Origin: Kutzneria kofuensis
GTDB taxonomy: Bacteria > Actinomycetota > Actinomycetes > Mycobacteriales > Pseudonocardiaceae
DNA: 64,000 nucleotides
Assembly (NCBI RefSeq): GCF_014203355.1
Contig: NZ_JACHIR010000002.1
Location: forward strand, 124,001-188,000
Direction: 5' to 3'
A program made the translations under genes and the position numbers. The notes beneath the pieces are model-generated. The model ran no database searches. It was not told where the DNA came from and saw nothing but the letters and a program-made list of their open reading frames with translations. This document shows, piece by piece, positions 1 to 13,033 of the stretch (positions are counted from its first letter, which is position 1; each line of letters opens with the position of its first letter).

Positions 1-793
1 CCTGCTGCCGGGTGATCCAGGACAGGATCTCCGGCTGGGTGTGCAGGGCGCCGCGCGCGTCGTCGGCGGTGCCGAAGGGCATGCAGGACAGCACGGTGCG
101 GGCGTCCATGTTGACCAGGTTGTCCACCCGCAGCAGGGCCTGAAGCTGGCCCAGGGTGAGCCAGCGGAAGTCGGGCCCCGCGTCGACGCGGTCCTCGAGC
201 TCCACGACCATGTTGCGGTTGCGCTTGCGGTAGAACCAGGCGCCCTGCTCGGACTGGAGGACGTCGGCGAACACCCGGCGCGGGTCGGGCTCGCGGAAGT
301 GCTCCAGGTAGGGCACCGCCGCGCCGCGGTGCACGCGCGTGTAGTTGCTGCGGGTGGCCTGCACCGTCGGCGAGAGCTGGACGCCGTTGACGTTGCCCGG
401 TTCGGACTTGGCCTGCATCAGGCAGTGCAGCACGCCTCCGATTTCGCGCAGGGCTATGCCGAGGATGCCGATCTCGGGCTGGTTGATCATCGGCTGGGAC
501 CACGCGGTGACCGGGCCGAAGTCGCTGTGCACCCGCACGCCCTCGACGGAGAAGAATTTCCCCGTGTGGTGACGCAAGTCGCCGGTGCGCGGGTCGAACG
601 ACCAGCCGGCCAGCGCGTCGAGGTCGACGCGCCGGACGTCCTGGCGCTGCTGCGCCTGCCGCTCGGTGAACCATTCGTGGAACTCGGCATTGCTGGTCGC
701 CACGCCGTCCACGGCCTGCTGCGACTCGGCGACGCGGGCGGGCAGGCCCGCGTCGAGGTGGCGCAGCAGTGTCACGCCGGACATCGACACCAC
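1..793 (-). CDS. NDP-hexose 2,3-dehydratase (partial, C-terminus off the left edge)
   Basis: Deoxysugar enzyme that removes water across C2-C3 of an NDP-4-keto-6-deoxyhexose, an early step toward 2-deoxy and 2,6-dideoxy sugars. About 264 residues are visible. Family blocks seen include LAGWSFDPRTGDLRH, INQPEIGILGI, LHCLMQAKSEPGNVNG, LSPTVQATRSNYTRVHRG, QGAWFYRKRNRNMVVE and LVNMDARTVLSCMPF. The family is about 450-480 aa with two homologous halves, so roughly half is missing here. The start is GTG at 793 (GTG at 790 and ATG at 784 are in-frame alternatives), chosen for GAAGGGAG just upstream. It lies 40 bp after the cyclase gene and is probably the same transcript. With the glycosyltransferase at 12.5 kb it implies a deoxysugar on the cluster product. 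Recognition of the family is firm. Confidence 0.93.
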   Translation of the reverse strand, partial: MVSMSGVTLLRHLDAGLPARVAESQQAVDGVATSNAEFHEWFTERQAQQRQDVRRVDLDALAGWSFDPRTGDLRHHTGKFFSVEGVRVHSDFGPVTAWSQPMINQPEIGILGIALREIGGVLHCLMQAKSEPGNVNGVQLSPTVQATRSNYTRVHRGAAVPYLEHFREPDPRRVFADVLQSEQGAWFYRKRNRNMVVELEDRVDAGPDFRWLTLGQLQALLRVDNLVNMDARTVLSCMPFGTADDARGALHTQPEILSWITRQQ

Positions 794-833: not shown

Positions 834-1292
834 CTAGCGGCGCGCCTTGGCCTCGGACTCGATGAACTCGGCGGTGGTCCGCAGGGCCTTCTCGGTGCCC
901 GCGGACAGCAGTTCGGCCATCTTGTCGTCGTCGACCGGCGAGGCTTCGGTGGTCTCGAAGTCCTGTACGCAGCGGATGGACGAGCCCCCGGGCGCGGGTG
1001 CGTACACCCACAGGGCGGTGGAGTAGAGGAAGAACGGGTTGCCGAAGCGGCGGGCATACGCGACGCGGCGGACCGGGTCGAGGATCCGTTCGACGTGGTA
1101 GTGCCACACCCGGCCGTCCGCGTCCGGCGGGGTGGCCACGCGCAGCACGCGGGAGTGGCGCGCCGGGTCCTCGGCGACGACGGCCTGCCCCTCCGGGGAG
1201 TGGCGGCGGTCCAGTTCGGTGGAGTTGGCCAGTTCCCAGGTCAGCTCGACGGGCGCCTCGATGAAGATCTGGTTGTCGACATGTCCTGCCAC
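834..1292 (-). CDS. SRPBCC-fold polyketide aromatase/cyclase-like protein (divergent copy)
   Basis: A 152-residue START/SRPBCC-fold protein of the kind that folds and aromatises poly-beta-keto chains in type II PKS pathways. It opens with AGHVDNQIFIEAPVELTW and ends with IRCVQDFETTEAS plus a C-terminal helix, the same layout as the cyclase at 4242-4700. The middle differs: the WPELF block is replaced by RRHSPEGQAVVAEDP, so the pocket may be changed. The GTG start at 1292 is preceded by GAAGGGGAG with about 7 nt spacing. It overlaps the end of the AcpS gene by 52 nt, which supports cotranscription. Inference: it acts at a different ring or step from the other cyclase. Confidence 0.8.
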   Translation of the reverse strand: MAGHVDNQIFIEAPVELTWELANSTELDRRHSPEGQAVVAEDPARHSRVLRVATPPDADGRVWHYHVERILDPVRRVAYARRFGNPFFLYSTALWVYAPAPGGSSIRCVQDFETTEASPVDDDKMAELLSAGTEKALRTTAEFIESEAKARR

Positions 1293-1747
1293 AGCGGTTC
1301 TCCCCTTCTCGTGTTCCACGCGATGACGCGGACCAGCACCAGTGCGCGGTCCGCGAGGTGCGACCAGCAGCCGGTCCAGCCGCGCACCCCGGCGCGCCAG
1401 GCGTGCGCGGCGGCGGCGCCGCTCAGTTCCAGGCGCAGGGCGCCGGCGGGGCCGGCGCGCACGGCGATGTCGGTCCACGCCATGCCCACCAGGCCACGGC
1501 CCAGTGCCTTGCCGCACGCCTCCTTGCCGGCCACGCTCACGCCCATCCGCACCGCCGGGTGCGGATGGCTGTCCACCTCGGCGAGCTCGCCGGAGGTGAA
1601 CACCTTGCCGAGGACGTCAGCGGGGAACCTGGTTCGCCACCGGGACATCCGCCGCAGGTCGGCCAGGTCGACGCCGATGCCCCGCACCAGCGGCGGGGGC
1701 GCCGGGGGTCTCGGTGGGCCCGCGGCCGGCCCGCCCCCGAGCCGCAT
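1241..1747 (-). CDS. acpS: Holo-ACP synthase (AcpS-family phosphopantetheinyl transferase)
   Basis: Transfers 4'-phosphopantetheine from CoA to the conserved serine of an acyl carrier protein. It has 168 residues with the AcpS signatures GIGVDLADLRRM near the N-terminus (Mg-binding Asp), FTSGELAEVDS, and VAGKEACGKALG (the Lys-Glu pair that binds metal and phosphate). It sits 2 bp after the ACP gene, so the ACP at 1750-2004 is the obvious substrate. The ATG at 1747 was chosen because the upstream extension is Arg-rich and carries no motif. The Ala/Pro-rich N-terminal 25 residues are longer than usual. A second, degenerate AcpS-like protein lies at 12656-13033. Confidence 0.87.
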   Translation of the reverse strand: MRLGGGPAAGPPRPPAPPPLVRGIGVDLADLRRMSRWRTRFPADVLGKVFTSGELAEVDSHPHPAVRMGVSVAGKEACGKALGRGLVGMAWTDIAVRAGPAGALRLELSGAAAAHAWRAGVRGWTGCWSHLADRALVLVRVIAWNTRRGEPLWQDMSTTRSSSRRPSS

Positions 1748-1749
1748 GG

Positions 1750-2004
1750 TCAGCTCAGGGCCCCGGCGGCCTTGCCGACGAGGGCGCACACATCGGCGAC
1801 GCTGGGGTCGGCGTCCAGTTCGAGGTCGATGTCGACGCCGAGGGTGCGCTTGAGCTCCAGGGTGATCTCGACCAGCTCGGTGGAATCCAGCTCGAGGTCG
1901 CTGCGCAGCCGGGCGGCGGAGGTGATGTCGTCGGCGGCGATGCCGATGGCGGCGATGGCCCGGACGACCTCGTCGGTGATCTGGTCGCTGGTGGTGTCGG
2001 TCAT
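1750..2004 (-). CDS. Acyl carrier protein (type II PKS)
   Basis: A discrete 84-residue carrier protein. The phosphopantetheine site is LELDSTELVEI, with the modified Ser in DST where DSL is usual. This is followed by the helix II region EITLELKRTLGVDIDLELDADPSVADV, here given only as family context. The ATG at 2004 overlaps the stop of the upstream KS-beta gene (ATGA), giving translational coupling. No other carrier protein is seen in this operon, so it should carry the growing chain and may also receive the salicyl starter. Confidence 0.92.
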   Translation of the reverse strand: MTDTTSDQITDEVVRAIAAIGIAADDITSAARLRSDLELDSTELVEITLELKRTLGVDIDLELDADPSVADVCALVGKAAGALS

Positions 2005-3254
2005 GGCATGCTCCGTTCCGGTTCCTGGTGGTGGTGGTCGGTGTCGGCCCGGCCGAGCACGATGACCACGTTGGCGCCCTCGCGGGCGCGGCTCACGACG
2101 ACGACGGTGTCGGTCTCCACCGGCCGGGTCCCGGTGACCAGGTCGACCGGGCAGTCCGGGTCGGCGTCGCCGCCGCCCGGGGTGGGCGGTATCGCCTTGT
2201 CGCGCAGCATCAGCACCGCGCACGCCACCTCGGTGGCGGCGCTCGCGCCGTACTGGTGTCCGTAGGCGGCCTTGGGGACGGTGACGGGCACGCCACGCGG
2301 CCCGAACACCCGCGCCAGCGCCCGCGCCTCCACGGCGTCCGCGACGACGCCGCCCGCGCCCTCGGCGAACACGACACCGACCTCCGCGGGTCGGCGACCG
2401 GCGCGGTCGAGGGCGGCGCGCAGCGCGGACTCCAGCCCGGCCGGGTCGGCCGGATCCGTGGTGCGCTGTTCGACGGCGAGAACCTCGCCGAGCACCTCGG
2501 CACCGCGCCGGGTGGCTCGCTCGGCGGTCTCCAGGACCAGCACGGTGGCGCCTTCGCCGAGGACGAGGCCGTCGCGGCCGGGCCGGAAGGGCCGGTAGGC
2601 GGTGGCCGGGTCGGCGGAGCGGGTCAGCTCGCCGGTGGTGACGTGGGCGGCGACTCCCAGGCGTGTGATGGGGGCTTCTGAGCCGCCGGCCAGGACGACG
2701 TCGTTGCGGCCCCAGGCGAGGCTGCGCAACGCGTGGTGCAGGGCGGTGGCGCCGCTGGCGCGGTCGCACGCGAAACTCTTGGAGAAGCCCCGCACGCCGT
2801 AGCGGATGCTGGTGAAGCCCTGCGCGGCCGTGGGGAACCAGGCGGTCGCCTGCCACGGGTTGATCATCGACGGGCCTTGTTCGTAGTACTCGCGGAAGCC
2901 GCGTTCGCACAGGTCCCAGCCGCCGCTGTTGTTGCCGAAGCTGATGCCGGTGCGGAACTCGTCCTCACCAGCCAGGTCGAGGCGCGCGTGCGCGAGCGCC
3001 TCGGCGGTGGCCGCGATCGCGTAGTGGGCGAACACGTCGCTCTTGACCGCGAGGCGGCGCGGGACGTGATCGAACCGGTCGAACTCGCGGACCTGCGCGG
3101 CCAGGTGGATCGGCAGGCCGCCGGCGTCGAATCGGTCGATCGGGGCGATCGCCGACGCGGCGGACAGGCAGTTCTTCCAGAAGGTCTCCCGGTCGTTGCC
3201 GAGGGGGTTCACCGTGCCGATACCGGTGATCAGGACACGGGGCCGGTCAGCCAC
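2001..3254 (-). CDS. Ketosynthase beta / chain-length-factor-like protein with Arg at the active-site position
   Basis: A 417-residue thiolase-fold KS of the KS-beta (chain length factor) type, partner of the KS at 6321-8411. When SGATA (167-171) is aligned with the SG(L/I)DA block of KS-alpha, the catalytic Cys position is Arg165. Most described chain length factors have Gln there. The VNAHG His motif is also lost (FAEGAGG), while a PKAAYGHQYGAS block keeps the second Lys/His region. The protein should therefore not condense by itself. GTG at 3254 follows GGAGGAGG, overlaps the upstream gene by 8 nt and is coupled to the ACP downstream. The role in chain length is known for the family; what Arg does here is unknown. 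Confidence 0.88.
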   Translation of the reverse strand: MADRPRVLITGIGTVNPLGNDRETFWKNCLSAASAIAPIDRFDAGGLPIHLAAQVREFDRFDHVPRRLAVKSDVFAHYAIAATAEALAHARLDLAGEDEFRTGISFGNNSGGWDLCERGFREYYEQGPSMINPWQATAWFPTAAQGFTSIRYGVRGFSKSFACDRASGATALHHALRSLAWGRNDVVLAGGSEAPITRLGVAAHVTTGELTRSADPATAYRPFRPGRDGLVLGEGATVLVLETAERATRRGAEVLGEVLAVEQRTTDPADPAGLESALRAALDRAGRRPAEVGVVFAEGAGGVVADAVEARALARVFGPRGVPVTVPKAAYGHQYGASAATEVACAVLMLRDKAIPPTPGGGDADPDCPVDLVTGTRPVETDTVVVVSRAREGANVVIVLGRADTDHHHQEPERSMP

Positions 3255-4245
3255 CTCGCACCTCCTCCCGCGCGGGTGTCCCCGCGCCCTCACGAGCGGC
3301 CGGTCCGCCCGGGTGTGGCCCGGCGACGGGTTTGAGCGACAGGGGCGTGCCGGTGACCTCGGCGACGCCGACCACCAGGTTGATTCGAGTGCGTTCCGGT
3401 TCCGCCCACCCGGCGACCGGGCCGGCGTCGAGCCGGTCCGCGGCGTCGGCGAGCAGCGCGGCGGCCGCCGGGTCGGGCCTGCCCTCGAGCGTGCCGACGA
3501 GCCCACGAACCGCGTCCGGGTGGGCGGCGGCCAGGTCGGCCGCGGCGGCTCGCACGGCACGCAGGTAGTCGCGGCAGGCGTGCAGCGCGTCGGCCGTCGC
3601 CACCGGGCCGTGGCCGGGCACGACGACGGTCGGGTCCAGGGCGCTCAATTCGTCCAGCGCGGCGGCCCAGCCGGCCAAGTTGCCGTGTCGGGCCAGCGGG
3701 GTCACCCCGTGCGAGCACAGGTCGCCGGTGACCAGCACACGGCTGTCGGGCAGCCATACGGTCAGGTCGGCGGGGCTGTGCGCGCCGAGGAACGCGCGAA
3801 TGCGCGCGCCATCGGGCAGGGCCGCGTGGTCCAGGTCGGTGGTGGTCGGGCCGGTGAGCGTGAAGCCTTCGGCGTCGACGCCGAAGTGGGCCAGCATCCC
3901 GGGCAGGAAACGGGGTTCGGCGGCCATCAGCGCGACGATCCGCCCGGTGGTGGGGTGGGCGAGGATCTCCGTGTCCGGGAACGCGGGGTTGCCGCCGAGG
4001 TGGTCGAGGTGGTTGTGGGTGTTGACCACGAGCCGGGTGGTGGCGCCGCGACGGGCCACCTCGGCGGTGATCGAGGCGGCCATGCCGGTGGTGAGCATCG
4101 TGTCGATCACGACGGCGTCACGGCCGTCGAGCAGGATCGTGGAGTTGGCCCGGCCGAGCCGCCCGGCGCCGTTGAGGACGGCGACGACGTCGTCAGCGAC
4201 CTCGACGGGCACGCGGGTGTCCTGCGCCACGGTCGTCCCGGTCAC
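3247..4245 (-). CDS. Metallo-beta-lactamase-fold hydrolase in the PKS operon
   Basis: A 332-residue metallo-beta-lactamase-fold protein. Metal motifs are NTHNHLDHLGG (HxHxDH), the GAHSPADL and TGDLCSHG blocks, and VVPGHGP. The last ~30 residues are Pro/Gly/Glu-rich and probably disordered. There is no signal peptide, so it is cytoplasmic. MBL-fold proteins in polyketide clusters have been found to act as thioesterases or cyclases, and this gene lies between an aromatase gene and KS-beta with stop-start overlaps on both sides, so chain release or cyclisation is likely. An independent esterase or resistance role is not excluded. Confidence 0.8.
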   Translation of the reverse strand: MTGTTVAQDTRVPVEVADDVVAVLNGAGRLGRANSTILLDGRDAVVIDTMLTTGMAASITAEVARRGATTRLVVNTHNHLDHLGGNPAFPDTEILAHPTTGRIVALMAAEPRFLPGMLAHFGVDAEGFTLTGPTTTDLDHAALPDGARIRAFLGAHSPADLTVWLPDSRVLVTGDLCSHGVTPLARHGNLAGWAAALDELSALDPTVVVPGHGPVATADALHACRDYLRAVRAAAADLAAAHPDAVRGLVGTLEGRPDPAAAALLADAADRLDAGPVAGWAEPERTRINLVVGVAEVTGTPLSLKPVAGPHPGGPAAREGAGTPAREEVRGG

Positions 4246-4700
4246 GCCAGTGCCGCCTCGGTCTCGATGAACTCCTTGTGCCGCAGCAACTGCGCCAGGG
4301 AGTTGCGGCCGATGCGGTCAGCCACCTGCTCGGTGGTGAACGGCGCCTCGGGCAGCACCTCGAAGTCCTGCACCCACCGCACCCGGGTGCCGCCGGGGAT
4401 CTCGGCGAAGTGCTGGAAGATGTGCATGTAGAGGAACGGGCCGGTCTCCACCCGGCGGGAGTTGACCGTGTGCCGCTCCGGGTCGGTGATCCGTTCGGAA
4501 ACCCAGCTGCGCTGCCTGCCCTGCTCGTCGGGGACCATCGTCAGCCGGAAGACCTTCCGCTCGCCGTCCACCTCGATCAGTTCGGCGGCGGCGTACTCGT
4601 CGACGAACAGCTCTGGCCAACGCTCCACGTCGTTCGCGATGCGCCACACGAGGTCCAGCGGAGCTGCGATCACGATGTCGTTGTCGAGGTGCCCGGACAC
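4242..4700 (-). CDS. Polyketide aromatase/cyclase (SRPBCC fold)
   Basis: A 152-residue START/SRPBCC protein that closely follows the TcmN/WhiE type of mono-domain aromatase/cyclase: SGHLDNDIVIAAPLDLVW, VERWPELF, RQRSWVSERITDPERHTV, RVETGPFLYMHIFQHFAE, VRWVQDFEV. Such enzymes catalyse regiospecific first-ring aldol cyclisation and aromatisation of an ACP-bound polyketone. The GTG at 4700 has a perfect AGGAGG about 5 nt upstream. It overlaps the ligase end by 31 nt and the next gene by GTGA. It is more canonical than the copy at 834-1292. Confidence 0.9.
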   Translation of the reverse strand: MSGHLDNDIVIAAPLDLVWRIANDVERWPELFVDEYAAAELIEVDGERKVFRLTMVPDEQGRQRSWVSERITDPERHTVNSRRVETGPFLYMHIFQHFAEIPGGTRVRWVQDFEVLPEAPFTTEQVADRIGRNSLAQLLRHKEFIETEAALA

Positions 4701-6328
4701 AGTGCCTCCTGGGGTTCGGGATGTGATCGGTCGGTGCGGGCGGAGGCGCCGCCCGGCGGGGTGGCGAGCGCGGTGAGGGCGGCGCGATCGAGCTTGCCGA
4801 CCGGGGTCAGCGGGAGTGCCTCCAGCACGCGCAGCAGGTCGGGCAGCTTGTACCCGGCCAAGCCCTGGTGGCGCAGGTACCGACGGACATCGGCCAGGTC
4901 GGGTGCCGCGTCGCCGGCCGGCACGACGAACACGCCCACGGTCTCGCCCAGGAACTCGTGCGGCACCGGCGCGACCGCGCAGGCGGCGACGCCGGGGCAG
5001 CCCACGAGCAACCCCTCGACCTCGTTCACCGAGACCTTCTCGCCGCCCCGGTTCACGAACTCGCGACGGCGGCCCTCGACGACCAGGTTGCCGCCCTCGT
5101 CCCGGCGGACCAGGTCGCCGCTGCGGTAGAAACCGTTCGAGGTGAACGAAGCGGCGTTCGCCTCGGGCGCGCGGTGGTAAGCGCCGATCGTGTACGGCCC
5201 GCGGACGAGCAGCTCGCCGATCTGGCCGTCCGGCACGGGTTGGCCGTCCTCGCCGACGATGAGCACCTCGTCACCGGGCGAGCCAGGGCGACCCTGGGTG
5301 CCGGTGACCACGTCCTCGGGGTCGTCGAGGCGGGTGAAGTTGAGCAGGCCCTCGGCCATGCCGAACACCTGCTGCAGCCGGCCGCCGATGGACTTGACCA
5401 CGCGCAGCGCGTCCGCGCGGTGCAGCTTGGCGCCGCCGACCTGGAGCAGCGCCAGGCCGGACAGATCGGCGCCCGAGTCGCACAGCGCGACGGCCATGCC
5501 GGGCACGGTGGCGGTGGCGGTGACCCGGTGCCGGGCGATCGCGTCCAGCAGCGCGGGCACTCCGGTCGCGCTGGGGAAGACCGCGGTGCCGCCCGCCGCC
5601 AGCACGCCCAGCACGCCTGGGCAGCCCAGCGCGAAATTGTGCGTCACCGGCAGCGCCGCCAGGTAGCGGGTGTTCTCGTCCACCCCCGCCAGTTCAGCGC
5701 TCATCCGCAGGTTGTAGCCGTAGTCGCGGTGCGTGCGGGGGATCAGCTTGGGCAGCCCGGTAGTGCCACCGGAGAGCAGGAAGAACGCCACGTCGGCCGG
5801 GTCGGCGCGATGGGAGGGCGGGGGCCCGTCGGCCGCGAGCACGTCGGCGAGGGCAACCGCGCCGGAGCGGGCGGGGTGGGCGACGACGGTGACGCCGGGA
5901 AGATCGGGCAGCTCGTCTCGGCCCGGGGAGACGACCAGGGCGCGGGCCTGCGCCGTGGTGACCACGTGCCGCAGCTCCCGCGTCCCGAGAGCGGGCACGG
6001 CGAGCACGGGCAGCGCCCCGGAGCGCACCAGGCCCAGCACGGTCACCAGCAGATCGGGCCCGTTGGGCAGGCGCACGACGACCCGGTCGCCGGGGCCGAC
6101 GCCCAGCTCGCGGAAGCCTGCCGCCGCCGCGGCGACGCGGGCCGCCAGCTCGCCCCGGGTCAGTCGCTGGTCCCCGGCCAGGATGGCGACCCGGTCCGGG
6201 TCGGCGCCCGATGGCCGCAGGACCAGTTCGTCGACCAGCTCGTCCCGCCACCAGCCGCGCGCCGTGTACTCGGCGACGAGGTCGGCGGGGGGCGCGACCG
6301 CGACCGGCGCCGGATCGCGTTCAGGCAC
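4670..6328 (-). CDS. Salicyl-AMP ligase (EntE/YbtE-like aryl acid adenylating enzyme)
   Basis: A 552-residue ANL-superfamily ligase that activates salicylate or 2,3-dihydroxybenzoate with ATP. Visible signatures are LLSGGTTGLPKLIPRTH (phosphate loop), YLAALPVTHNFAL, LQQVFGMAEGLLNFTRLDD, FYRSGDLVRRDEGG, NRGGEKVSVNEVEG, GYKLPD and the C-terminal TPVGKLDRAAL with the catalytic Lys. The combination is that of standalone aryl-acid ligases. Because the salicylate synthase gene lies in the same operon, salicylate is the likely substrate. No aryl carrier protein is seen, so the acyl group may go to the ACP, to the KS-hydrolase, or to a sugar as in the SF2575 pathway. GTG at 6328 overlaps the previous stop by 8 nt. 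Confidence 0.9.
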   Translation of the reverse strand: MPERDPAPVAVAPPADLVAEYTARGWWRDELVDELVLRPSGADPDRVAILAGDQRLTRGELAARVAAAAAGFRELGVGPGDRVVVRLPNGPDLLVTVLGLVRSGALPVLAVPALGTRELRHVVTTAQARALVVSPGRDELPDLPGVTVVAHPARSGAVALADVLAADGPPPSHRADPADVAFFLLSGGTTGLPKLIPRTHRDYGYNLRMSAELAGVDENTRYLAALPVTHNFALGCPGVLGVLAAGGTAVFPSATGVPALLDAIARHRVTATATVPGMAVALCDSGADLSGLALLQVGGAKLHRADALRVVKSIGGRLQQVFGMAEGLLNFTRLDDPEDVVTGTQGRPGSPGDEVLIVGEDGQPVPDGQIGELLVRGPYTIGAYHRAPEANAASFTSNGFYRSGDLVRRDEGGNLVVEGRRREFVNRGGEKVSVNEVEGLLVGCPGVAACAVAPVPHEFLGETVGVFVVPAGDAAPDLADVRRYLRHQGLAGYKLPDLLRVLEALPLTPVGKLDRAALTALATPPGGASARTDRSHPEPQEALCPGTSTTTS

Positions 6329-8411
6329 GGCTGGTCACCGCCGGAGGCCGGATCGCGAGCAACGGCGCCAGGAGGCCGGCCAGCCGGGCCGGGTCGTCCA
6401 GGTGCAGGTAGTGATCGGCGTCCGCCAAAACATGGGCGGTGCCGTGCGGCAGGGCCGCTGCCAGGGCGCGCCCCTTGCGCGGGGACACCACGCGGTCGGC
6501 GGCCGGCACCAGCACATCGACCGGGACCCGCACCGCCGCTTCGGTCTGCTTCGGGTCCGTGCCGACGACCCCCCACAGGTCGGTGTCACGGGCGGGCAGA
6601 CGCACGGCGCGGAACCCGGCCAGCAGCGCCTCGCGCGCGGACTCGGTACCGGTGCGCAGGCAGGAGCCCAGGAAATCCTCGTCGAGTTCGCCGGTGAGCA
6701 CCTGCTCCACCATCCTGGGGTGCAGGCGCAGCGGCAGCCCGGCGCCGAGCGTGACCACAGAGGACACCCGCACGGCGTGCGCGGCCAGGTCCAGGGCGAG
6801 GACACCGCCGAAGGAGTGGCCCACCACGACCGTGTCGGCCATGCCGTGTGCGTCCAGCGCGTCGAGCAGGAACGCGCGGGTGCCGTCGGGACCACCGCCG
6901 TCGGCCGGCAGGGTGTTGGCGCCGTGCCCGGGCAGGTCCACGGCCAGCACGTGGGCGCGCACGTCCAGCTCGCGCAGCAGCGGCACCCAGTGCTCGGCGG
7001 TGCCAGCGAAACCGTGCAGCAGCAGCACATCCGGACCGTCACCGGGGCTGCCCCAGGACACGGTGGTGGCCCCGCTGCCGGGCAGCGTGCCCCGGACCAG
7101 GTCACGGTCCCCGACGTCGCCCGGGTGCCACCAGCTTTCCCGTGCCGGGCCGACCCGCGACAGCACGGCGCACGAATGGATGCCGCCGAAGCCGCTGGCG
7201 CTGACCAGGGCGGTGCGAACGTCGTGCGCGCGAGCCGTGGTGGGTACGTAGTCCAGGTCGCATCTCGGGTCCGGCGTGGTGAGATTCGCCGTCGGCGGGA
7301 CCACGGCGTGGCGCAGCGCGCCGATCGCGGCGATCGTGCCGACCAGGCTGGCCGAGGACAGCGAGTGACCGATCATGGACTTGGTCGAGCTGATCGGCGT
7401 GCGGCGGGCGTGCTCCTCGCCGAGGACCTGCTTGAGAGCCTGGGTCTCGAACACGTCGTTCTGCGGAGTGGAGCTGCCGTGCGCGTTGACGTAGTCGATC
7501 CGTTCCGGCGGCACCCCCGCGTCGGCGAGCGAGCGGGTGATCACAGCGGCCATCGCCCGGCCGTCCGGGGCGAGGTCGCTCATGTGGAAGGCGTTGTTGG
7601 CGCTGGCGAACCCGTTGACCTCGGCGTAGATCCGGGCGCCCCGGGCGCGGGCGTGCTCGTACTCCTCCAGCACGACGGCGGCGGCCCCCTCGCCCAGGAC
7701 GAACCCGCCCCGGGTCGCGTCGAACGGGCGCGAGGCGGTCTCCGGCGGACCGTCGACGACGGCCAGCGACCCGATGACGTCGAGGGTGGCGTAGGCGAGC
7801 CCGGACAGCGGCGCCTCCCCCGCCGCGGCCACGGCCAGGTCCAGGTCGCCGTAGCGGATCTGGTCGAAGGCGAGGCCCAGGGAGTCGATGCCCGCGGTGC
7901 AGCCGGTCGTCAGCGTGGTGCACGAGCCGCGCAGGCCGAATCGGCGGGACGTCCAGGCCGCGGTGTAGTTGAGGAACACGGAGTCGTAGAACGGCAGGTC
8001 CTCCGGGAACGGGCGCAGCGCGGTGGCGCCCCGGTCGCTGTAGACCTCATACGCCTTCTGGAACTCCGGTGTCCCGCCGATCGCGGAGGAGAAAACCACC
8101 CCGGCGCGGTCGCCGTCGAAATCCGAACGGTCGAGCGCGGCGTCCCGTGCGGCCAGCGCGGTCGCGGTGACCGACAGCTGCACGAACCGGCTCAGCCCGG
8201 CCAGTTCGGCGGCGGTCTCCGCGTCGTGGTGGTCGGCCAGGTCGAAGTCCTCGATGGGGCAGTGCGACCGGCTCCTGAGGCCCAGCTCGGCCATCAGCGG
8301 TTCGGGGCGCAGCCGCGACCGTCCGGACACGCTCCCCCGCCAGAACTGCTCGACCCCGATGCCGTTCGGGGCGACCACGCCGATCCCGGCGACCACGACG
8401 CGGCGCTTCAC
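6321..8411 (-). CDS. Ketosynthase fused to a C-terminal alpha/beta-hydrolase
   Basis: A 696-residue two-domain protein. Residues ~1-415 are a KS-alpha-type ketosynthase with a complete catalytic set: Cys171 in LTTGCTAGIDSLG, His311 in VNAHGSS, Lys344 and His349 in STKSMIGHS. Residues ~455-690 are an alpha/beta-hydrolase: DVLLLHGFAGTAEHW (oxyanion region), nucleophile Ser533 in GHSFGG, Asp639 in PAADRVVSP and His667 in DADHYLH. There is no stop or frameshift between them. KS-alpha proteins of type II PKSs normally stop after the first domain. The hydrolase could act as a thioesterase, an editing domain or an acyltransferase. GTG 8411 overlaps the salicylate synthase stop (GTGA). The assignments rest on clear motifs; the fused domain's job is inferred. 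Confidence 0.9.
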   Translation of the reverse strand: MKRRVVVAGIGVVAPNGIGVEQFWRGSVSGRSRLRPEPLMAELGLRSRSHCPIEDFDLADHHDAETAAELAGLSRFVQLSVTATALAARDAALDRSDFDGDRAGVVFSSAIGGTPEFQKAYEVYSDRGATALRPFPEDLPFYDSVFLNYTAAWTSRRFGLRGSCTTLTTGCTAGIDSLGLAFDQIRYGDLDLAVAAAGEAPLSGLAYATLDVIGSLAVVDGPPETASRPFDATRGGFVLGEGAAAVVLEEYEHARARGARIYAEVNGFASANNAFHMSDLAPDGRAMAAVITRSLADAGVPPERIDYVNAHGSSTPQNDVFETQALKQVLGEEHARRTPISSTKSMIGHSLSSASLVGTIAAIGALRHAVVPPTANLTTPDPRCDLDYVPTTARAHDVRTALVSASGFGGIHSCAVLSRVGPARESWWHPGDVGDRDLVRGTLPGSGATTVSWGSPGDGPDVLLLHGFAGTAEHWVPLLRELDVRAHVLAVDLPGHGANTLPADGGGPDGTRAFLLDALDAHGMADTVVVGHSFGGVLALDLAAHAVRVSSVVTLGAGLPLRLHPRMVEQVLTGELDEDFLGSCLRTGTESAREALLAGFRAVRLPARDTDLWGVVGTDPKQTEAAVRVPVDVLVPAADRVVSPRKGRALAAALPHGTAHVLADADHYLHLDDPARLAGLLAPLLAIRPPAVTSRA

Positions 8412-9772
8412 GACGTCACCTCGGCGGCCAGGCCCGCCAGTGCGCCGTCCGGCGCCGGCGTCGCGAGCGGAACGAGGAACCGGGACACCGAGCGGAGTTT
8501 CTCGCACGTCTCCTCGTACTCCCGGTCCGGTGTGGACGCTGCGACGATCCCGGCGCCCGCGCGCAGCCAGGTGCGGCCGCCGGCCTGGAACACGGTCCGC
8601 AACACCAGAGTCGCGTCCAGCGTGCCTCGGCTGTCGGCCACCAGCACCGCGCCCGCGTACAGGCCGCGTGGCCCCGACTCCAGGCGGCGGATCGTTTCGT
8701 AGGCGGCGGCCTTCGGGATGCCCGACACGGTCACCGCGGGGAACACCGACTGCAGCGCGTCCCACGCGTCACGGTTCGCGGCCAAGTCGCCGCGCACGGC
8801 CGACCCGAGGTGCTGCACGCTGCCGCGCTCCTGCACGCCGAGGAACCCTTCGACCCGCACCGAGCCCGGCGTGCACACGTCGCGCAGGTCGTCGATGGCG
8901 GCCTTGACGGACACGGCGTGTTCGAAGATCTCCTTGGGATCGGTCTCCAACTCCGCGCGCAGCCGCCGGTTCAGCGCCTCGTCCTCCTGCAGCGCGCGCG
9001 TTCCGGCCAGCGGCTGGGTGACCACGGTGACGCCGTCGGACTCGCAGACGATCTCCGGGCTGAACCCGGCCGCGCGCACCCCGCCCAGGTCCAGCAGGAA
9101 CGACCGCACCGGCGTGTTGCCGCGCCGGCCCCGCGCATAGGTGCGGGGCAGGTCGACGGGACCGCGCACGGGCACCACGCGGGACACGATGGCCTTCTGC
9201 AGCGCGCCGGAACGGATCTCGGCGACCGCGGCGGCCACCGCCGCTCGGTAGTGGTCGCGGCCGTGCGATATGTCGACGCCGACCACGGCGGTATCGTCCA
9301 TTGTGGACTGTACTGGAGTGGCCAGCACATCGACGACCTCGGCGATCGTGCCCGGGTCGATCCCGCGCACCACGGCGCGGCCACCGTCCAGGATCACCTC
9401 GCAGCGCGGCACGACGACATGCGCGAGGGGTTCGTCGCCGACGCTCTGGCCCAGCGGTGGGTAGGCGGCCTCGAAGGCCACCCATCCGTAGGCGCGCCAA
9501 TCCGCGACCGGCAGGCTCCGCAGGGCGTCGACGACCTGCCCCAGGGTCCCGTCGCACGGCCTGGTCGTGGTCGAGCCGTCCAGGGTCAGCCGCAGCCCGG
9601 CACGTTCGGAGCGCACCTCGGCGAGCACGTCGCCGGCCACGGAGAACCGCCCGTCGCGCTCGACGACGACGTAGCTGTCGAACACGCCGGACGACACCAG
9701 ATTGGTGACGACGTCGAGCGGATCACCTGCGAACGGCGTGACACGCTCCGCGTAACGGTAGGAAGTGGGCAC
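8408..9772 (-). CDS. Salicylate synthase (MbtI/Irp9/SsfH type)
   Basis: Converts chorismate to salicylate through isochorismate, using Mg2+. The 454 residues match family length (MbtI 450). Diagnostic blocks: LQKAIVSRVVPV with the catalytic Lys, QPLAGTRAL, TDPKEIFEHAVSV with metal-binding Glu, RGSVQHLGSAV, FPAVTVSGIPKAAA, GPRGLYAGAV, TWLRAGAGI and EETCEKL. GTG at 9772 is preferred because the upstream in-frame extension has no family similarity; no strong ribosome site precedes it, so the start is uncertain. It is first in the long leftward operon and divergent from the P450. No other siderophore genes are seen nearby, so the salicylate probably feeds the polyketide product. Confidence 0.93.
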   Translation of the reverse strand: MPTSYRYAERVTPFAGDPLDVVTNLVSSGVFDSYVVVERDGRFSVAGDVLAEVRSERAGLRLTLDGSTTTRPCDGTLGQVVDALRSLPVADWRAYGWVAFEAAYPPLGQSVGDEPLAHVVVPRCEVILDGGRAVVRGIDPGTIAEVVDVLATPVQSTMDDTAVVGVDISHGRDHYRAAVAAAVAEIRSGALQKAIVSRVVPVRGPVDLPRTYARGRRGNTPVRSFLLDLGGVRAAGFSPEIVCESDGVTVVTQPLAGTRALQEDEALNRRLRAELETDPKEIFEHAVSVKAAIDDLRDVCTPGSVRVEGFLGVQERGSVQHLGSAVRGDLAANRDAWDALQSVFPAVTVSGIPKAAAYETIRRLESGPRGLYAGAVLVADSRGTLDATLVLRTVFQAGGRTWLRAGAGIVAASTPDREYEETCEKLRSVSRFLVPLATPAPDGALAGLAAEVTS

Positions 9773-9926
9773 GGAACCGAGCGTGCCCCGCGGTTCCAGG
9801 CGGCGGAACCGAACGAACCCGTACCGCGCCGCTGGTAAGACTGGCAACCCGGCTACGGTCCAACCCGCAACCGGGTTGCGGTCTACTGCGGCGGCGCCGC
9901 CCGGGGGGTGGCGCTATCCATGGGGG
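9773..9926. promoter_or_regulatory. Divergent promoter region with inverted repeat
   Basis: The 154 bp between the salicylate synthase and P450 starts must hold both promoters. It contains a perfect 7+3+7 inverted repeat (CCGCAAC-CGG-GTTGCGG, 9865-9881) nested with a second one (CAACCC-N6-GGGTTG, 9861-9878). Another copy of the half-site GCAACC lies at 9844. This looks like the operator of a dimeric repressor such as TetR, but no regulator of that type is in the window. Confidence 0.55.
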
Positions 9927-11117
9927 GTGGAGTCCATCACCGCACCAGAGCTGTCCCTGCACCGGCCCAACCCCGTCGACCCGCCGCCGGAGTGCCCGGC
10001 GCACCGCGCGGGCGGGATCAGCCGCGTGCTGCTTCCCACCGGACAGGAGGCCTGGCTGGTGTCGCGCTACGAGGACATCCGAACCCTCGCCGTCGACCCC
10101 CGGATCAGCTCACACCTCAACGGCCTGGGCACGGTCAGCCACGAGCCGGTGCCGCGCAGGCACCCGGGCGCACCCGAGCACATCACCAACCTGGACGGGG
10201 CGGCGCACCGCCGGTTCCGGCTGCCGATCGCGCGGCACTTCACGGCGCGCAGGCTGACCCAGCTCACCGAGTACGTCAGGGAGACCGCCGACGCCTGCTT
10301 CGCCGAGATGGAGCGGCAGGGGCCGGGCGTCGACCTGGTGCGGACGCTCGCGATGCGGGTCCCCTCGGACACGATCTGCCGTCTGTTCGGCCTGCCCGTG
10401 GCCGACCAGGACACCTTCCACGAGCTGGCCACGCTGGCCTTGGGCGGGTTCGCCCGCAGCGAGGAGGAGCAGCGTGAAGCGGGCCCTCGGATGTTCGGCT
10501 ACCTGGCCGGCATCGTCGCGGACAAGCACGAGCACCCCGACGACGGCCTGTTCTCCGACCTGGTGCACGGCGGGCACGGCTTCACCGACGAAGAGGTGCT
10601 GGTGCTGTCCGGCACGCTGCTGGTCGCCGGGTTCGACACCACGGCGAACATGCTCGCGCTGGGCACCTACGCCCTGCTCGACCAGCGAGACCAGTGGGAC
10701 GCGCTGGCCGCCGCGCCGGACCGGGCCGAGGCGGTCGGCGAGGAGCTGATGCGGTACCTGACCGTCATGCAGCGCGGCATTCTGCGGCGAGCCGCCACCG
10801 ACTTCGAATACGCGGGCACCCGCTTCGCCGAAGACGACCTGGTGCTGCTGTTCCTGCCCGCCGGCAACCGGGACCCGGACCTGGTCGCGGAACCGGACGT
10901 GCTGGACGTGACCCGGGACCCGGTGCGCCACCTCGGTTTCGGCTACGGGCCGCACCAGTGCATCGGCCAGCAGCTGGCCCGTCTGGAGATGGGCGTGGTG
11001 TGGTCGGGGCTCGCGCGCCGCTTCCCCGGGCTGCGCCTGGCCGTGCCCGCGGAGGAGATCCGGTTCCGGTCGGACACCGTGGTGTTCGGGGTGGAGGAAC
11101 TGCCCGTCACCTGGTGA
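9927..11117 (+). CDS. Cytochrome P450
   Basis: A 396-residue soluble actinobacterial P450, probably a tailoring oxygenase of the polyketide cluster. The I-helix motif is VAGFDTTANML with the acid-Thr pair, the K-helix ExxR is EELMR, and the heme loop is FGYGPHQCIGQQLARLEM with the Cys ligand. The N-terminus (PPPECPAHR) is typical of CYP107/CYP105-like enzymes. I chose GTG at 9927, although a GTG at 9765 is in frame, because the homologous region starts near there and the longer version would overlap the divergent gene. Substrate cannot be told from sequence. It needs a ferredoxin partner, and none is seen. Confidence 0.92.
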   Translation: MESITAPELSLHRPNPVDPPPECPAHRAGGISRVLLPTGQEAWLVSRYEDIRTLAVDPRISSHLNGLGTVSHEPVPRRHPGAPEHITNLDGAAHRRFRLPIARHFTARRLTQLTEYVRETADACFAEMERQGPGVDLVRTLAMRVPSDTICRLFGLPVADQDTFHELATLALGGFARSEEEQREAGPRMFGYLAGIVADKHEHPDDGLFSDLVHGGHGFTDEEVLVLSGTLLVAGFDTTANMLALGTYALLDQRDQWDALAAAPDRAEAVGEELMRYLTVMQRGILRRAATDFEYAGTRFAEDDLVLLFLPAGNRDPDLVAEPDVLDVTRDPVRHLGFGYGPHQCIGQQLARLEMGVVWSGLARRFPGLRLAVPAEEIRFRSDTVVFGVEELPVTW

Positions 11118-11346: not shown

Positions 11347-12498
11347 TCACGCCGCGACCCGCGCGGCCAGCCTCTCCACTTCGGCCACCAGCGCGACCGG
11401 GCCGGGCCGGGCCGCCAGTTCGGCCGCCACTTCGCCGGCGCGGGCGGCATAAGCCGGGTCACCGAGGACCGACGCGCACGCCTCGCGCACCTCGTCCGGA
11501 CCGGTGTGGCCACGGGTCAGGCCGATTCCGGCGCGCAGGGCGTGCACGTGCGCAGAGTTGCTGAACTGGTCGGCCGCGTGCGGCATGACCACCTGGGGGG
11601 TGCCGGTGGCCAGAGCGGTCATCGCCGAGCCGGACCCGCCGTGGTGCACCAGCAGGTCACAGCCGGGCAGCACCGCGTTCAGCGGCGTGTAGCCGATCTG
11701 CCGGACGCGGTCCGGCAACGGGGGAAGCGCAGCTGCCACCTCGGCGGACACGGCGAGCAGCACCTCGTAGCCCTGCCCGGCCAGCAGGGCTGCCAGTCCG
11801 CCCACGGCGCGGTCGATCCCCGGATAGTTCCCGATCATCGTGCCGAACGTCAGGCACACCCGCGGCCGGCTCGCCGGAGTGAGCAGCCAGGACGGGAGCG
11901 TGGCCACGCCGTTGTAGGGCACGAATCGCATCCGGAAGCCGGCATCGTCTGCCGGCAGGGCGTCCCCGGGACTGGTGCGCAGCACCAGGTCCGGCCGGGC
12001 GGCCCGTTCTCCCGGGTCGCGCTCGGCGCGCTCCGGGGCCAGTTCCTCGCGGACCGCGTCGGCCATCACCGAGGGCACCGGCAGACCCCAGTCGTGCACC
12101 ACGAACGGGATGCCGCGCCGCGCGGCGGCCAGGCGCACCGCGTACTCGGTGGGCTCGACCACGACGACGTCCGGGCGCAGCGTGTCCACCAGGTCGTCGG
12201 CCGCGTCCAGGGCGGCCAGGCCGGCCCGGCCGAACCCACGACCGCTGCGGGCCAGCTTGCCCTCCTCCTCAGGCGGGTCCGGCACGGGCTCACCCGCACG
12301 ATCCACGCCGATGCACCGGCGCATCTCGATCGACGACGCGGTCTCCACATGCGGCAGCCCGGCGCCGAGGATCGCGCCGGCGAAGTTGCCGGCTGCGGCG
12401 ACGAGGACGTCGTGGCCGGCGGCGCGCAGCGCGGACGCCAGCGGGACCATCGGGTAGAAGTGTCCGTACGACGGCAGGGTGCTGAACAGGACCCGCAT
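11347..12498 (-). CDS. Glycosyltransferase, GT1 family (antibiotic tailoring type)
   Basis: A 383-residue GT-B fold enzyme that moves a deoxysugar from an NDP-sugar to an aglycone. The N-terminal acceptor domain starts MRVLFSTLPSYGHFYPMVPL. The C-terminal donor domain carries the signature LLVHHGGSGSAMTALATGTP followed by HAADQFSNSAHV. The length is typical of glycosyltransferases from aromatic polyketide clusters. The ATG at 12498 has GGGAGGAC 5 nt upstream; a longer in-frame N-terminus from 12558 lacks similarity. With the 2,3-dehydratase it argues for a 2-deoxysugar product. O- versus C-glycosylation cannot be decided. Confidence 0.92.
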   Translation of the reverse strand: MRVLFSTLPSYGHFYPMVPLASALRAAGHDVLVAAAGNFAGAILGAGLPHVETASSIEMRRCIGVDRAGEPVPDPPEEEGKLARSGRGFGRAGLAALDAADDLVDTLRPDVVVVEPTEYAVRLAAARRGIPFVVHDWGLPVPSVMADAVREELAPERAERDPGERAARPDLVLRTSPGDALPADDAGFRMRFVPYNGVATLPSWLLTPASRPRVCLTFGTMIGNYPGIDRAVGGLAALLAGQGYEVLLAVSAEVAAALPPLPDRVRQIGYTPLNAVLPGCDLLVHHGGSGSAMTALATGTPQVVMPHAADQFSNSAHVHALRAGIGLTRGHTGPDEVREACASVLGDPAYAARAGEVAAELAARPGPVALVAEVERLAARVAA

Positions 12499-12655
12499 GT
12501 GTCCTCCCGGGTCGGGGCGGTCGTTACCGGGCGAGGCTAGCGGCGGCCGGGCGGACACGGCGGTGGGTGGAACCGCAGTTCGTGTCGGGTTTCCCGCAGC
12601 GAGGGGTCGGCACCGCCCGGGGTGGTGGCGAGCACGCGACGGCTAGCGTTTGGTG

Positions 12656-13033
12656 GTGCTGCGCACCGAACTCGTCGACGTGGCGCGCCTGTCCCGCGCG
12701 CTGACCCGCACGCCCCGGCTGGCATCGCGGCTGTTCACCGAGGCGGAGCGACGCGGCCCGGACGGGCGGCCGCGGGGGACGGCCTCCCTCGCGGCGCGGT
12801 GGGCGGCCAAACGTGCGGCCGTACTCCTGCTGGACGGCGATCCAGCGCGGCTGCCGAGCTGTGAGGTGCTGACCGGCGAAGGCGGGCAGCCGCTGCTGCG
12901 CGTACCGGGCACGTCAGGGATCCGCTGGCACGTGTCCCTGTCCCACCAGTCGGGTACGGCCGTGGCCTCGGTGTGGGCCGAGCCGGTGACCGGCCCGAGC
13001 ACTTCATACAGGTCCCCGTCTTCCACCGGGTGA
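12656..13033 (+). CDS. AcpS-like protein with lost catalytic Glu (degenerate phosphopantetheinyl transferase)
   Basis: About 125 residues with the layout of AcpS: TELVDVARLSRAL (metal Asp retained), LFTEAERRG, LAARWAAKRAAVLLL and WHVSLSHQSGTAVASV. In active AcpS the third block reads AAKEA; here it is AAKRA, replacing the metal-binding Glu by Arg, so activity is doubtful. The C-terminus after the VSLSH block is short. There is no ribosome-binding site before GTG 12656, but TAGCGT at 12644-12649 fits a -10 box for a leaderless transcript. GTG at 12653 is an alternative. It diverges from the glycosyltransferase. It could be a scaffold, an unusual transferase or a decaying gene. Confidence 0.65.
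   Translation: MLRTELVDVARLSRALTRTPRLASRLFTEAERRGPDGRPRGTASLAARWAAKRAAVLLLDGDPARLPSCEVLTGEGGQPLLRVPGTSGIRWHVSLSHQSGTAVASVWAEPVTGPSTSYRSPSSTG

What the first reader, a model, noticed from the sequence alone, without database searches (positions are those of the whole stretch)
6321..8411. Ketosynthase fused to an alpha/beta-hydrolase in a type II PKS operon
One open frame encodes a KS with Cys171, His311, Lys344 and His349 intact, then a hydrolase with Ser533, Asp639 and His667. Type II KS-alpha proteins are normally single-domain. The hydrolase could release or edit chains, or transfer salicyl. Being locked to the KS, it should act on the KS- or ACP-bound chain, which may be a new way to start or end aromatic polyketide synthesis.
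Basis: partly seen in the sequence, partly recalled or inferred. Interest (0 to 1): 0.85.

Follow-up and report, generated by a model that had tools for sequence, protein, structure and literature searches.

The report
Ketosynthase with a built-in hydrolase
The chain-building enzyme of an aromatic-antibiotic-like pathway carries, as an extra domain, a hydrolase that is a separate protein in related bacteria; this suggests a dedicated chain-release or proofreading step in this class of pathways and gives a simple way to test it.

Summary
It is not a sequencing join: Streptomyces oryzae and a second genome of that genus carry the same fusion in the same gene order, 61-62% identical over both domains, with different linkers. 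The pathway is a salicylate-primed type II PKS of the thermorubin clade. In 15 of 15 loci of this clade compared, the hydrolase is present, separate in 12 and fused in 3; its triad is invariant in all 15. KS and hydrolase trees largely agree, and the three fusions form one group in both. So a standing part of this PKS type seems to have been tethered to the KS once. Most likely it hydrolyses thioesters held by KS-CLF/ACP: chain release first, starter editing second. Salicyl transfer is disfavoured: four loci with the hydrolase show no salicylate synthase, and a published relative loads salicylate without it.

The parts
6321..8411 (-). KS-alpha fused to alpha/beta-hydrolase, 696 aa (KS 1-~420, linker ~417-456, hydrolase ~456-690); KS residues C171, H311, K344, H349; hydrolase triad S533/D639/H667
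   Evidence: translation; Pfam; residues; conserved fusion
6321..7061 (-). hydrolase domain as used for alignment A7 (246 aa); Abhydrolase_6/Abhydrolase_1
7150..8411 (-). KS domain; nearest solved structures by sequence 6smo_B, FabF-type 1j3n_A and the actinorhodin KS 1tqy_A
8408..9847 (-). salicylate synthase (start uncertain); its end overlaps the KS start by 4 bases (GTGA)
   Evidence: NCBIfam TIGR03494 447.8 bits, cut-off 325.2
4670..6328 (-). aryl acid-AMP ligase, predicted salicylate activation; its start overlaps the end of the KS-hydrolase frame by 8 bases
   Evidence: Pfam AMP-binding; nearest NCBIfam DHB_AMP_lig 481 bits, below its cut-off 723.6
4242..4700 (-). SRPBCC polyketide cyclase 1
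   Evidence: Pfam PF10604/PF03364; 14 of 15 loci
3247..4245 (-). metallo-beta-lactamase-fold protein; among the 15 loci in the 4 actinobacterial ones only
   Evidence: Pfam
2001..3254 (-). chain length factor (KS-beta) of the thermorubin type, Arg in the active-site Cys column
1750..2004 (-). acyl carrier protein, 84 aa
   Evidence: Pfam PP-binding; 15 of 15 loci
1241..1687 (-). AcpS-like phosphopantetheinyl transferase (start uncertain)
   Evidence: NCBIfam hits below their cut-offs; start; 12 of 15 loci
834..1292 (-). SRPBCC polyketide cyclase 2 (start uncertain)
   Evidence: Pfam PF10604 26.5 bits, just below its cut-off 27.4; start
1..784 (-). NDP-hexose 2,3-dehydratase, runs past the window's left edge
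   Evidence: Pfam PF03559 555 bits on the longer frame in L012; start
9765..11117 (+). cytochrome P450, divergent from the salicylate synthase; a 61% identical copy lies beside the fusion in G1085
   Evidence: Pfam
11347..12558 (-). EryCIII-like glycosyltransferase
   Evidence: Pfam; NCBIfam

Best explanation
This is a thermorubin-type, salicylate-primed type II PKS in which a clade-wide, normally separate alpha/beta-hydrolase was fused, most simply once, to the C-terminus of the KS in an actinobacterial branch. Proposed working: salicylate synthase makes salicylate; the ligase loads it on the ACP; KS-CLF extends it with malonyl units; the tethered serine hydrolase takes the acyl group from the ACP (or KS) onto Ser533 and hydrolyses it, freeing the assembly line. 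I think release of the finished, partly cyclised chain is its main job (AlpS-like in function). Shown here: fusion in three genomes, relatedness to the clade hydrolases, invariant triad, co-inheritance, operon layout. Inferred: thioester substrate, release rather than editing, the benefit of tethering, the salicyl starter in this organism.
For: Same fusion in three genomes, one group in both trees: KS 99*, hydrolase 100/99*. The hydrolase is in 15 of 15 clade loci compared, 12 separate and 3 fused. Ser/Asp/His invariant 15 of 15. The fused domain scores 82-115 bits against 10 of the separate clade hydrolases (53 in Lapidilactobacillus, no direct hit in Listeria), while the nine best matches listed from its own 10.4-Mb genome score 35-58 bits in the same kind of search. 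KS and hydrolase distances over the 15 loci correlate, r 0.952, 0 of 5000 permutations as high. Salicylate synthase model above cut-off. Precedent: AlpS, a discrete alpha/beta-hydrolase, is needed for kinamycin, hydrolyses an aromatic acyl-SNAC but propionyl-SNAC only minimally, and raised a polyketide titre about 25-fold in E. coli (PMC7492732, abstract and passages).
Against: No assay and no structure. The domain does not reach the Pfam Thioesterase model (PF00975 19.6 bits, cut-off 26.4), so it is not shown to be of the classical type II thioesterase family. Its nearest solved relatives by profile are assorted esterases, lipases, depolymerases, a lactonase and C-C hydrolases, so sequence does not name the bond cut. 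The Gloeocapsa minimal PKS makes C29 salicyl products in vitro, and the passages I read list no hydrolase among its components (PMC11744666), so it is not strictly needed for release. The four actinobacterial loci also have a metallo-beta-lactamase-fold protein that could be the release enzyme. The grouping of all 15 clade hydrolases against the nine others is not starred (93/90), the N. tenerifensis hydrolase is unresolved, and the order inside the fused three differs between the two trees.
Confidence: 0.45

Rival explanations
1. Starter-editing thioesterase: the tethered hydrolase removes acetyl (from decarboxylated malonyl) or other wrong starters from KS/ACP so that only the ligase-supplied starter is extended, as ZhuC and EncL do in function.
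For: All 15 loci also have an AMP-ligase that may activate a special starter. Without salicylate the Gloeocapsa minimal PKS makes chains of 12-13 malonyl units, so mispriming is real (PMC11744666, passages). Other non-acetate systems carry editing enzymes (PMC12664062, passages). Six of six thermorubin-type CLFs checked have Arg, not Gln, in the Cys column, which would fit weak decarboxylative priming (that reading is recalled, not from a call).
Against: ZhuC and EncL are AT-like by the review, a different fold. An AT homologue (Acyl_transf_1 37.6 bits, L012:3794-4771) lies near the window's cluster and could edit.
Confidence: 0.3
2. C-C bond or ring-forming release: the hydrolase releases the chain by retro-Claisen trimming, Claisen/Dieckmann closure or lactone (pyrone) formation, like PlAntI in function.
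For: PlAntI, an alpha/beta-lyase of another bacterial type II PKS, off-loads, trims and cyclises (PMC11165489, abstract and passages). The KS is nearest by sequence to 6smo_B, which I recall as the Photorhabdus anthraquinone KS. Profile neighbours include C-C hydrolases and an enol-lactonase.
Against: PlAntI and its fungal relatives have an N-domain in front of the hydrolase domain (about 140 residues in the fungal two); the separate clade hydrolases are 250-268 aa, 221 in Listeria, with no room for one. 6hxa (PlAntI) is not among the 26 distinct sequences at E <= 1e-20; looser thresholds were not tried with the profile.
Confidence: 0.13
3. Salicyl transferase: the hydrolase carries salicyl from the ligase or CoA to ACP or KS.
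For: Neighbour of salicylate synthase and ligase genes.
Against: Present in the 4 of 15 loci where no salicylate synthase was found in the stretch held. The Gloeocapsa ligase with ATP loads salicyl on the ACP (PMC11744666).
Confidence: 0.04
4. Artefact or dead domain: two genes joined by error, or a hydrolase without function.
For: The fused hydrolases diverge faster than the KS (44-46% against 71% identity between the window and the other two).
Against: Three genomes, one frame each, different linkers, invariant triad.
Confidence: 0.02

Closest known systems
Thermorubin-type type II PKS (Laceyella sacchari; Gloeocapsa gloPKS)
   Same: KS, CLF, ACP, ligase, salicylate synthase, SRPBCC cyclase, alpha/beta-hydrolase; KS in one group (99*) apart from 31 canonical actinobacterial KS. 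That the Gloeocapsa cluster resembles the thermorubin one and makes C29 salicyl products is from PMC11744666 (passages). Gloeocapsopsis crepidinum, not the published Gloeocapsa strain, is in my set, and the L. sacchari record is strain DSM 43356.
   Different: Hydrolase fused to the KS; Cyclase (PF04199), cupin and CMD genes not found; metallo-beta-lactamase-fold protein and second SRPBCC present; sugar, P450 and glycosyltransferase genes nearby.
Nocardia tenerifensis locus (L052/L057)
   Same: Shares salicylate synthase, ligase, hydrolase, KS, CLF and the metallo-beta-lactamase-fold protein; KS sister to the fusions (support 90).
   Different: Hydrolase is a separate gene just upstream of the KS; other gene order; the locus is cut by the contig end inside the CLF.
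AlpS (kinamycin off-loading thioesterase)
   Same: Alpha/beta-hydrolase with Ser-Asp-His in a type II PKS, perhaps co-transcribed with a KS pair (PMC7492732).
   Different: AlpS is discrete and has the GHSMG motif; here the domain is fused, reads GHSFGG, and is below the PF00975 cut-off.
PlAntI (anthraquinone trimming lyase)
   Same: Alpha/beta fold acting on an ACP-bound aromatic polyketide in a type II PKS (PMC11165489).
   Different: Extra N-domain; a discrete enzyme.
ZhuC / EncL editing thioesterases
   Same: Serve non-acetate-primed type II PKSs (PMC12664062).
   Different: AT-like proteins.

Membership tests
[quoted passage not shown]
   KS group of 15 rows, 99*, with Laceyella sacchari and Gloeocapsopsis; 31 canonical KS outside; 6 thermorubin-type CLFs together 99* (quick tree, long-branch warning)
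Thermorubin-type (salicylate-primed) type II PKS | salicylate synthase and aryl-acid ligase in the operon | tested here: met
   TIGR03494 above cut-off; AMP-binding ligase, nearest equivalog model below its cut-off
Thermorubin-type (salicylate-primed) type II PKS | Cyclase PF04199, cupin and CMD genes of the cyanobacterial and firmicute loci | tested here: not met
   not found in the 4 actinobacterial loci (N. tenerifensis locus incomplete)
Thermorubin-type (salicylate-primed) type II PKS | salicyl-primed C29 product | not testable with these tools
   no product known to me for this genome
Alpha/beta-hydrolase superfamily | Ser-Asp-His triad on a PF00561/PF12697 domain | tested here: met
Type II thioesterase (PF00975) | match to the Thioesterase model at its cut-off | tested here: not met
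   19.6 bits, cut-off 26.4; 14 of 15 members match at E <= 0.1; the Laceyella copy reaches 30.0 but scores higher with Abhydrolase_1
AlpS-type off-loading thioesterase | hydrolysis of aromatic acyl thioesters | not testable with these tools
   needs an assay; AlpS itself was not compared by sequence
PlAntI-type trimming lyase | N-domain before the hydrolase domain | tested here: not met
   separate members are 250-268 aa, 221 in Listeria; domain description from PMC11165489
ZhuC/EncL editing enzymes | acyltransferase-like protein | tested here: not met
   no acyltransferase model among the Pfam hits of the protein at E <= 0.1

The most novel reading that the evidence does not exclude
The hydrolase is the dedicated off-loading or proofreading enzyme of a whole, cross-phylum class of type II PKSs (actinobacteria, cyanobacteria, firmicutes), and in one branch it is wired in cis to the KS, so that a dissociated type II system acquires the type I trick of a covalently attached terminating domain.
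Probability: 0.5. Interest if true: 0.72.

Novelty: new variant of a known kind. Interest (0 to 1): 0.58.

Why it matters
How type II PKSs let go of their chains is poorly known; AlpS was presented as the first dedicated off-loading thioesterase (PMC7492732). Here a hydrolase is tied to a PKS class by presence in all 15 loci compared and, in three genomes, by covalent bond to the KS. That names a candidate for release or proofreading in thermorubin-type pathways, gives a ready-made test (one protein, one serine), and offers a natural design for raising titres of aromatic polyketides. Thermorubin is a ribosome-targeting antibiotic (PMC9938272, search listing).

Tried and rejected
Artefactual join: rejected by three genomes. 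Canonical actinobacterial KS with a domain gained from the host's own hydrolases: rejected; the KS is outside 31 canonical KS, and the fused domain groups with the clade hydrolases against the nine best-matching hydrolases listed from its own genome (93/90, not starred). Salicyl transfer: disfavoured.

Led nowhere: naming the reaction from sequence relatives. phmmer and profile searches of the PDB give generic esterases, dehalogenases, epoxide hydrolases, MenH, C-C hydrolases and a lactonase. NCBIfam hits shown for the hydrolases are under their cut-offs. Literature searches for a KS-hydrolase or KS-thioesterase fusion in type II PKSs found none (no papers; only the listings seen, most of the papers in them not opened; term look-ups in PMC10132072, and PMC4383371, show no KS fusion). 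The key thermorubin gene-cluster paper (McCord 2022, seen only as a reference) and the EncL paper are not held, so 'not described before' covers the held library only.

Limits: the genome searches scored only the two best candidates per genome, seven; their match lists are capped but ranked by E-value, so a fusion (about 830 bits) would stand at the top. The scan used two peptide patterns, so the 15 loci are a sample: 12 from the scan, plus Priestia, G1085 and the window. N. tenerifensis is counted once; L057 stood in for L052. The four loci without a salicylate synthase are known only over the stretch held (10.6 kb in Lapidilactobacillus). The KS tree was of the quick kind with a long-branch warning. 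Correlated KS and hydrolase distances are expected of any co-inherited gene pair and do not show interaction.
Full report
OBSERVATION. The frame at 6321-8411 is on the minus strand and encodes 696 aa. Pfam finds a full KS (ketoacyl-synt 3-254, Ketoacyl-synt_C 262-377) and an alpha/beta-hydrolase (Abhydrolase_6 462-678). C171, H311, K344, H349, S533, D639 and H667 are in place. GC3 is 0.88-0.98 in all twelve 58-codon blocks, and 0.93 over codons 417-456. The genes around it overlap: the salicylate synthase end and the KS start by 4 bases, the KS-hydrolase end and the ligase start by 8, as in a translationally coupled operon.

SURROUNDINGS. On the same strand lie a salicylate synthase (TIGR03494, 447.8 bits, cut-off 325.2), an AMP-binding ligase nearest to dihydroxybenzoyl-AMP ligases (below that model's cut-off), an SRPBCC cyclase, a metallo-beta-lactamase-fold protein, a CLF, an ACP, an AcpS-like transferase, a second SRPBCC protein and an NDP-hexose 2,3-dehydratase. 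Beyond the window's left edge, in the same genome, are an acyltransferase homologue, an F420-type oxidoreductase, a protein that NCBIfam places near ketosteroid isomerases and a methyltransferase homologue (last two below their cut-offs); two more frames there look like methyltransferases by eye only. A P450 is divergent from the salicylate synthase, and an EryCIII-like glycosyltransferase follows. So the product is probably a glycosylated aromatic polyketide; this is inference.

RELATIVES. Of the 20 plasmid rows listed (1347 records matched), the highest-scoring KS was from Priestia megaterium (364 bits; the actinomycete rows at most 303). The CLF had one plasmid hit at E <= 1e-60, the Priestia one. 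An alignment of the two CLFs (A3) found 12 loci in the genome collection: Streptomyces oryzae, six cyanobacteria, Laceyella sacchari, Orenia metallireducens, Lapidilactobacillus mulanensis, Nocardia tenerifensis and Listeria aquatica. S. oryzae has salicylate synthase, KS-hydrolase in one frame, ligase, cyclase, metallo-beta-lactamase fold, CLF and second cyclase in the window's order. Genome G1085, in the same genus code as S. oryzae, has it too (61% over residues 3-686). In N. tenerifensis the hydrolase is a separate gene just upstream of the KS; in the six cyanobacteria and Laceyella it directly follows the salicylate synthase.

CORE GENE SET. An all-against-all comparison of 15 loci (window with L012, S. 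oryzae, G1085, N. tenerifensis, six cyanobacteria, Laceyella, Orenia, Priestia, Lapidilactobacillus, Listeria) gives: KS, CLF, ACP and ligase in 15 of 15 (CLF split in Listeria, cut in N. tenerifensis); hydrolase as a separate gene in 12, fused in the other 3; SRPBCC cyclase in 14; PPTase in 12; salicylate synthase in 11 (not found in Priestia, Orenia, Lapidilactobacillus and Listeria, over the stretches held); cupin and Cyclase (PF04199) in 11 and CMD in 10, none of them in the four actinobacterial loci; metallo-beta-lactamase fold in those four only (family names). The Listeria hydrolase was linked through its relatives, not by direct similarity to the fused domain. In the alignment of all 15 hydrolases, H466, G467, W475, P494, G495, G531, S533, G535, G536, D639, R645 and H667 are invariant. 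KS C171, H311, K344 and H349 are invariant in the 15 clade KS.

TREES. In a quick tree of 60 rows the 15 thermorubin-type KS form one group (99*), the three fused KS form one (99*), N. tenerifensis joins them (90), and 31 canonical KS from the window's family stay apart (97*). In a careful tree of the hydrolases with 9 others from the window's own genome, the fused three group at 100/99* and all 15 stand apart from the 9 at 93/90, short of a star; N. tenerifensis is unresolved there, and inside the fused three the KS tree pairs the window with G1085 while the hydrolase tree pairs S. oryzae with G1085. KS and hydrolase identity distances correlate at r 0.952, 0 of 5000 permutations as high. The simplest history is one fusion, in an actinobacterial branch, of an already present hydrolase. 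Its rarity: own family 1 of 390, phylum 1 of 396, the genus of G1085 1 of 392, its family 2 of 394 (the second taken to be S. oryzae), the genus of the N. tenerifensis genome 0 of 150; the samples overlap.

MECHANISM. Two things are strong: the hydrolase belongs to this PKS class, and it is built as an active serine hydrolase. What it hydrolyses is inferred. Being tied to the KS, its likely substrates are acyl groups on the KS cysteine or on the ACP docked there. Release is favoured because a discrete alpha/beta-hydrolase, AlpS, does just this in kinamycin biosynthesis (PMC7492732), and because the hydrolase is constant while the salicylate gene is not. Editing is close behind: every locus has an AMP-ligase that may serve a special starter, and the related Gloeocapsa minimal PKS makes chains from malonyl units alone when salicylate is withheld (PMC11744666). 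That study got C29 salicyl products from KS-CLF, ACP, ligase and a malonyltransferase; the passages I read list no hydrolase, and the words hydrolase and thioesterase have no occurrence in the main text. So neither priming nor some release strictly needs it. Trimming or ring-closing release, as in PlAntI (PMC11165489), stays open, though the N-domain of that family is missing. Neither Pfam nor PDB profile searches decide the reaction.

KNOWN AND NEW. The PKS is a member of a known kind: the thermorubin-type clade. PMC10132072 (passages) reports a large, mainly non-actinobacterial CLF clade; whether this clade is part of it I did not test. The KS-hydrolase fusion and the constant presence of the hydrolase did not come up in the literature searches or in the passages seen. 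The main thermorubin cluster paper could not be read. I file it as a new variant of a known kind.

Noticed in passing
window 2001-3254 (-) and relatives: Six of six thermorubin-type CLFs checked have Arg (DRASG/DRVSG) in the column of the KS active-site Cys, where canonical CLFs mostly have Gln (6 of 8; the two from the window's own genome have Gly and Glu). This may go with loss of decarboxylative self-priming (recalled link).
   Followed up: partly
L053 7063-7299 and 7286-8221: The CLF of the Listeria aquatica locus is split over two frames: a broken gene or a sequencing error. Only described.
   Followed up: no
window 1241-1687 (-) and 12650-13033 (+): Two AcpS-like phosphopantetheinyl transferase genes in one neighbourhood, both with NCBIfam hits below cut-off.
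   Followed up: no
L012:3794-4771 (own genome, left of the window): An acyltransferase homologue (PF00698 37.6 bits; FabD 44.8 bits against a cut-off of 260.9) in the same neighbourhood: malonyl loader or a ZhuC-like editor.
   Followed up: partly
window 3247-4245 (-): A metallo-beta-lactamase-fold protein present in all four actinobacterial thermorubin-type loci, where the Cyclase (PF04199), cupin and CMD genes of the other loci were not found: a possible replacement.
   Followed up: partly
G000 contig C2, about 46,600-86,800 (77-37 kb left of the window): Many KS domains in frames of 3,750-5,878 aa: probably a large modular type I PKS cluster on the same contig.
   Followed up: no
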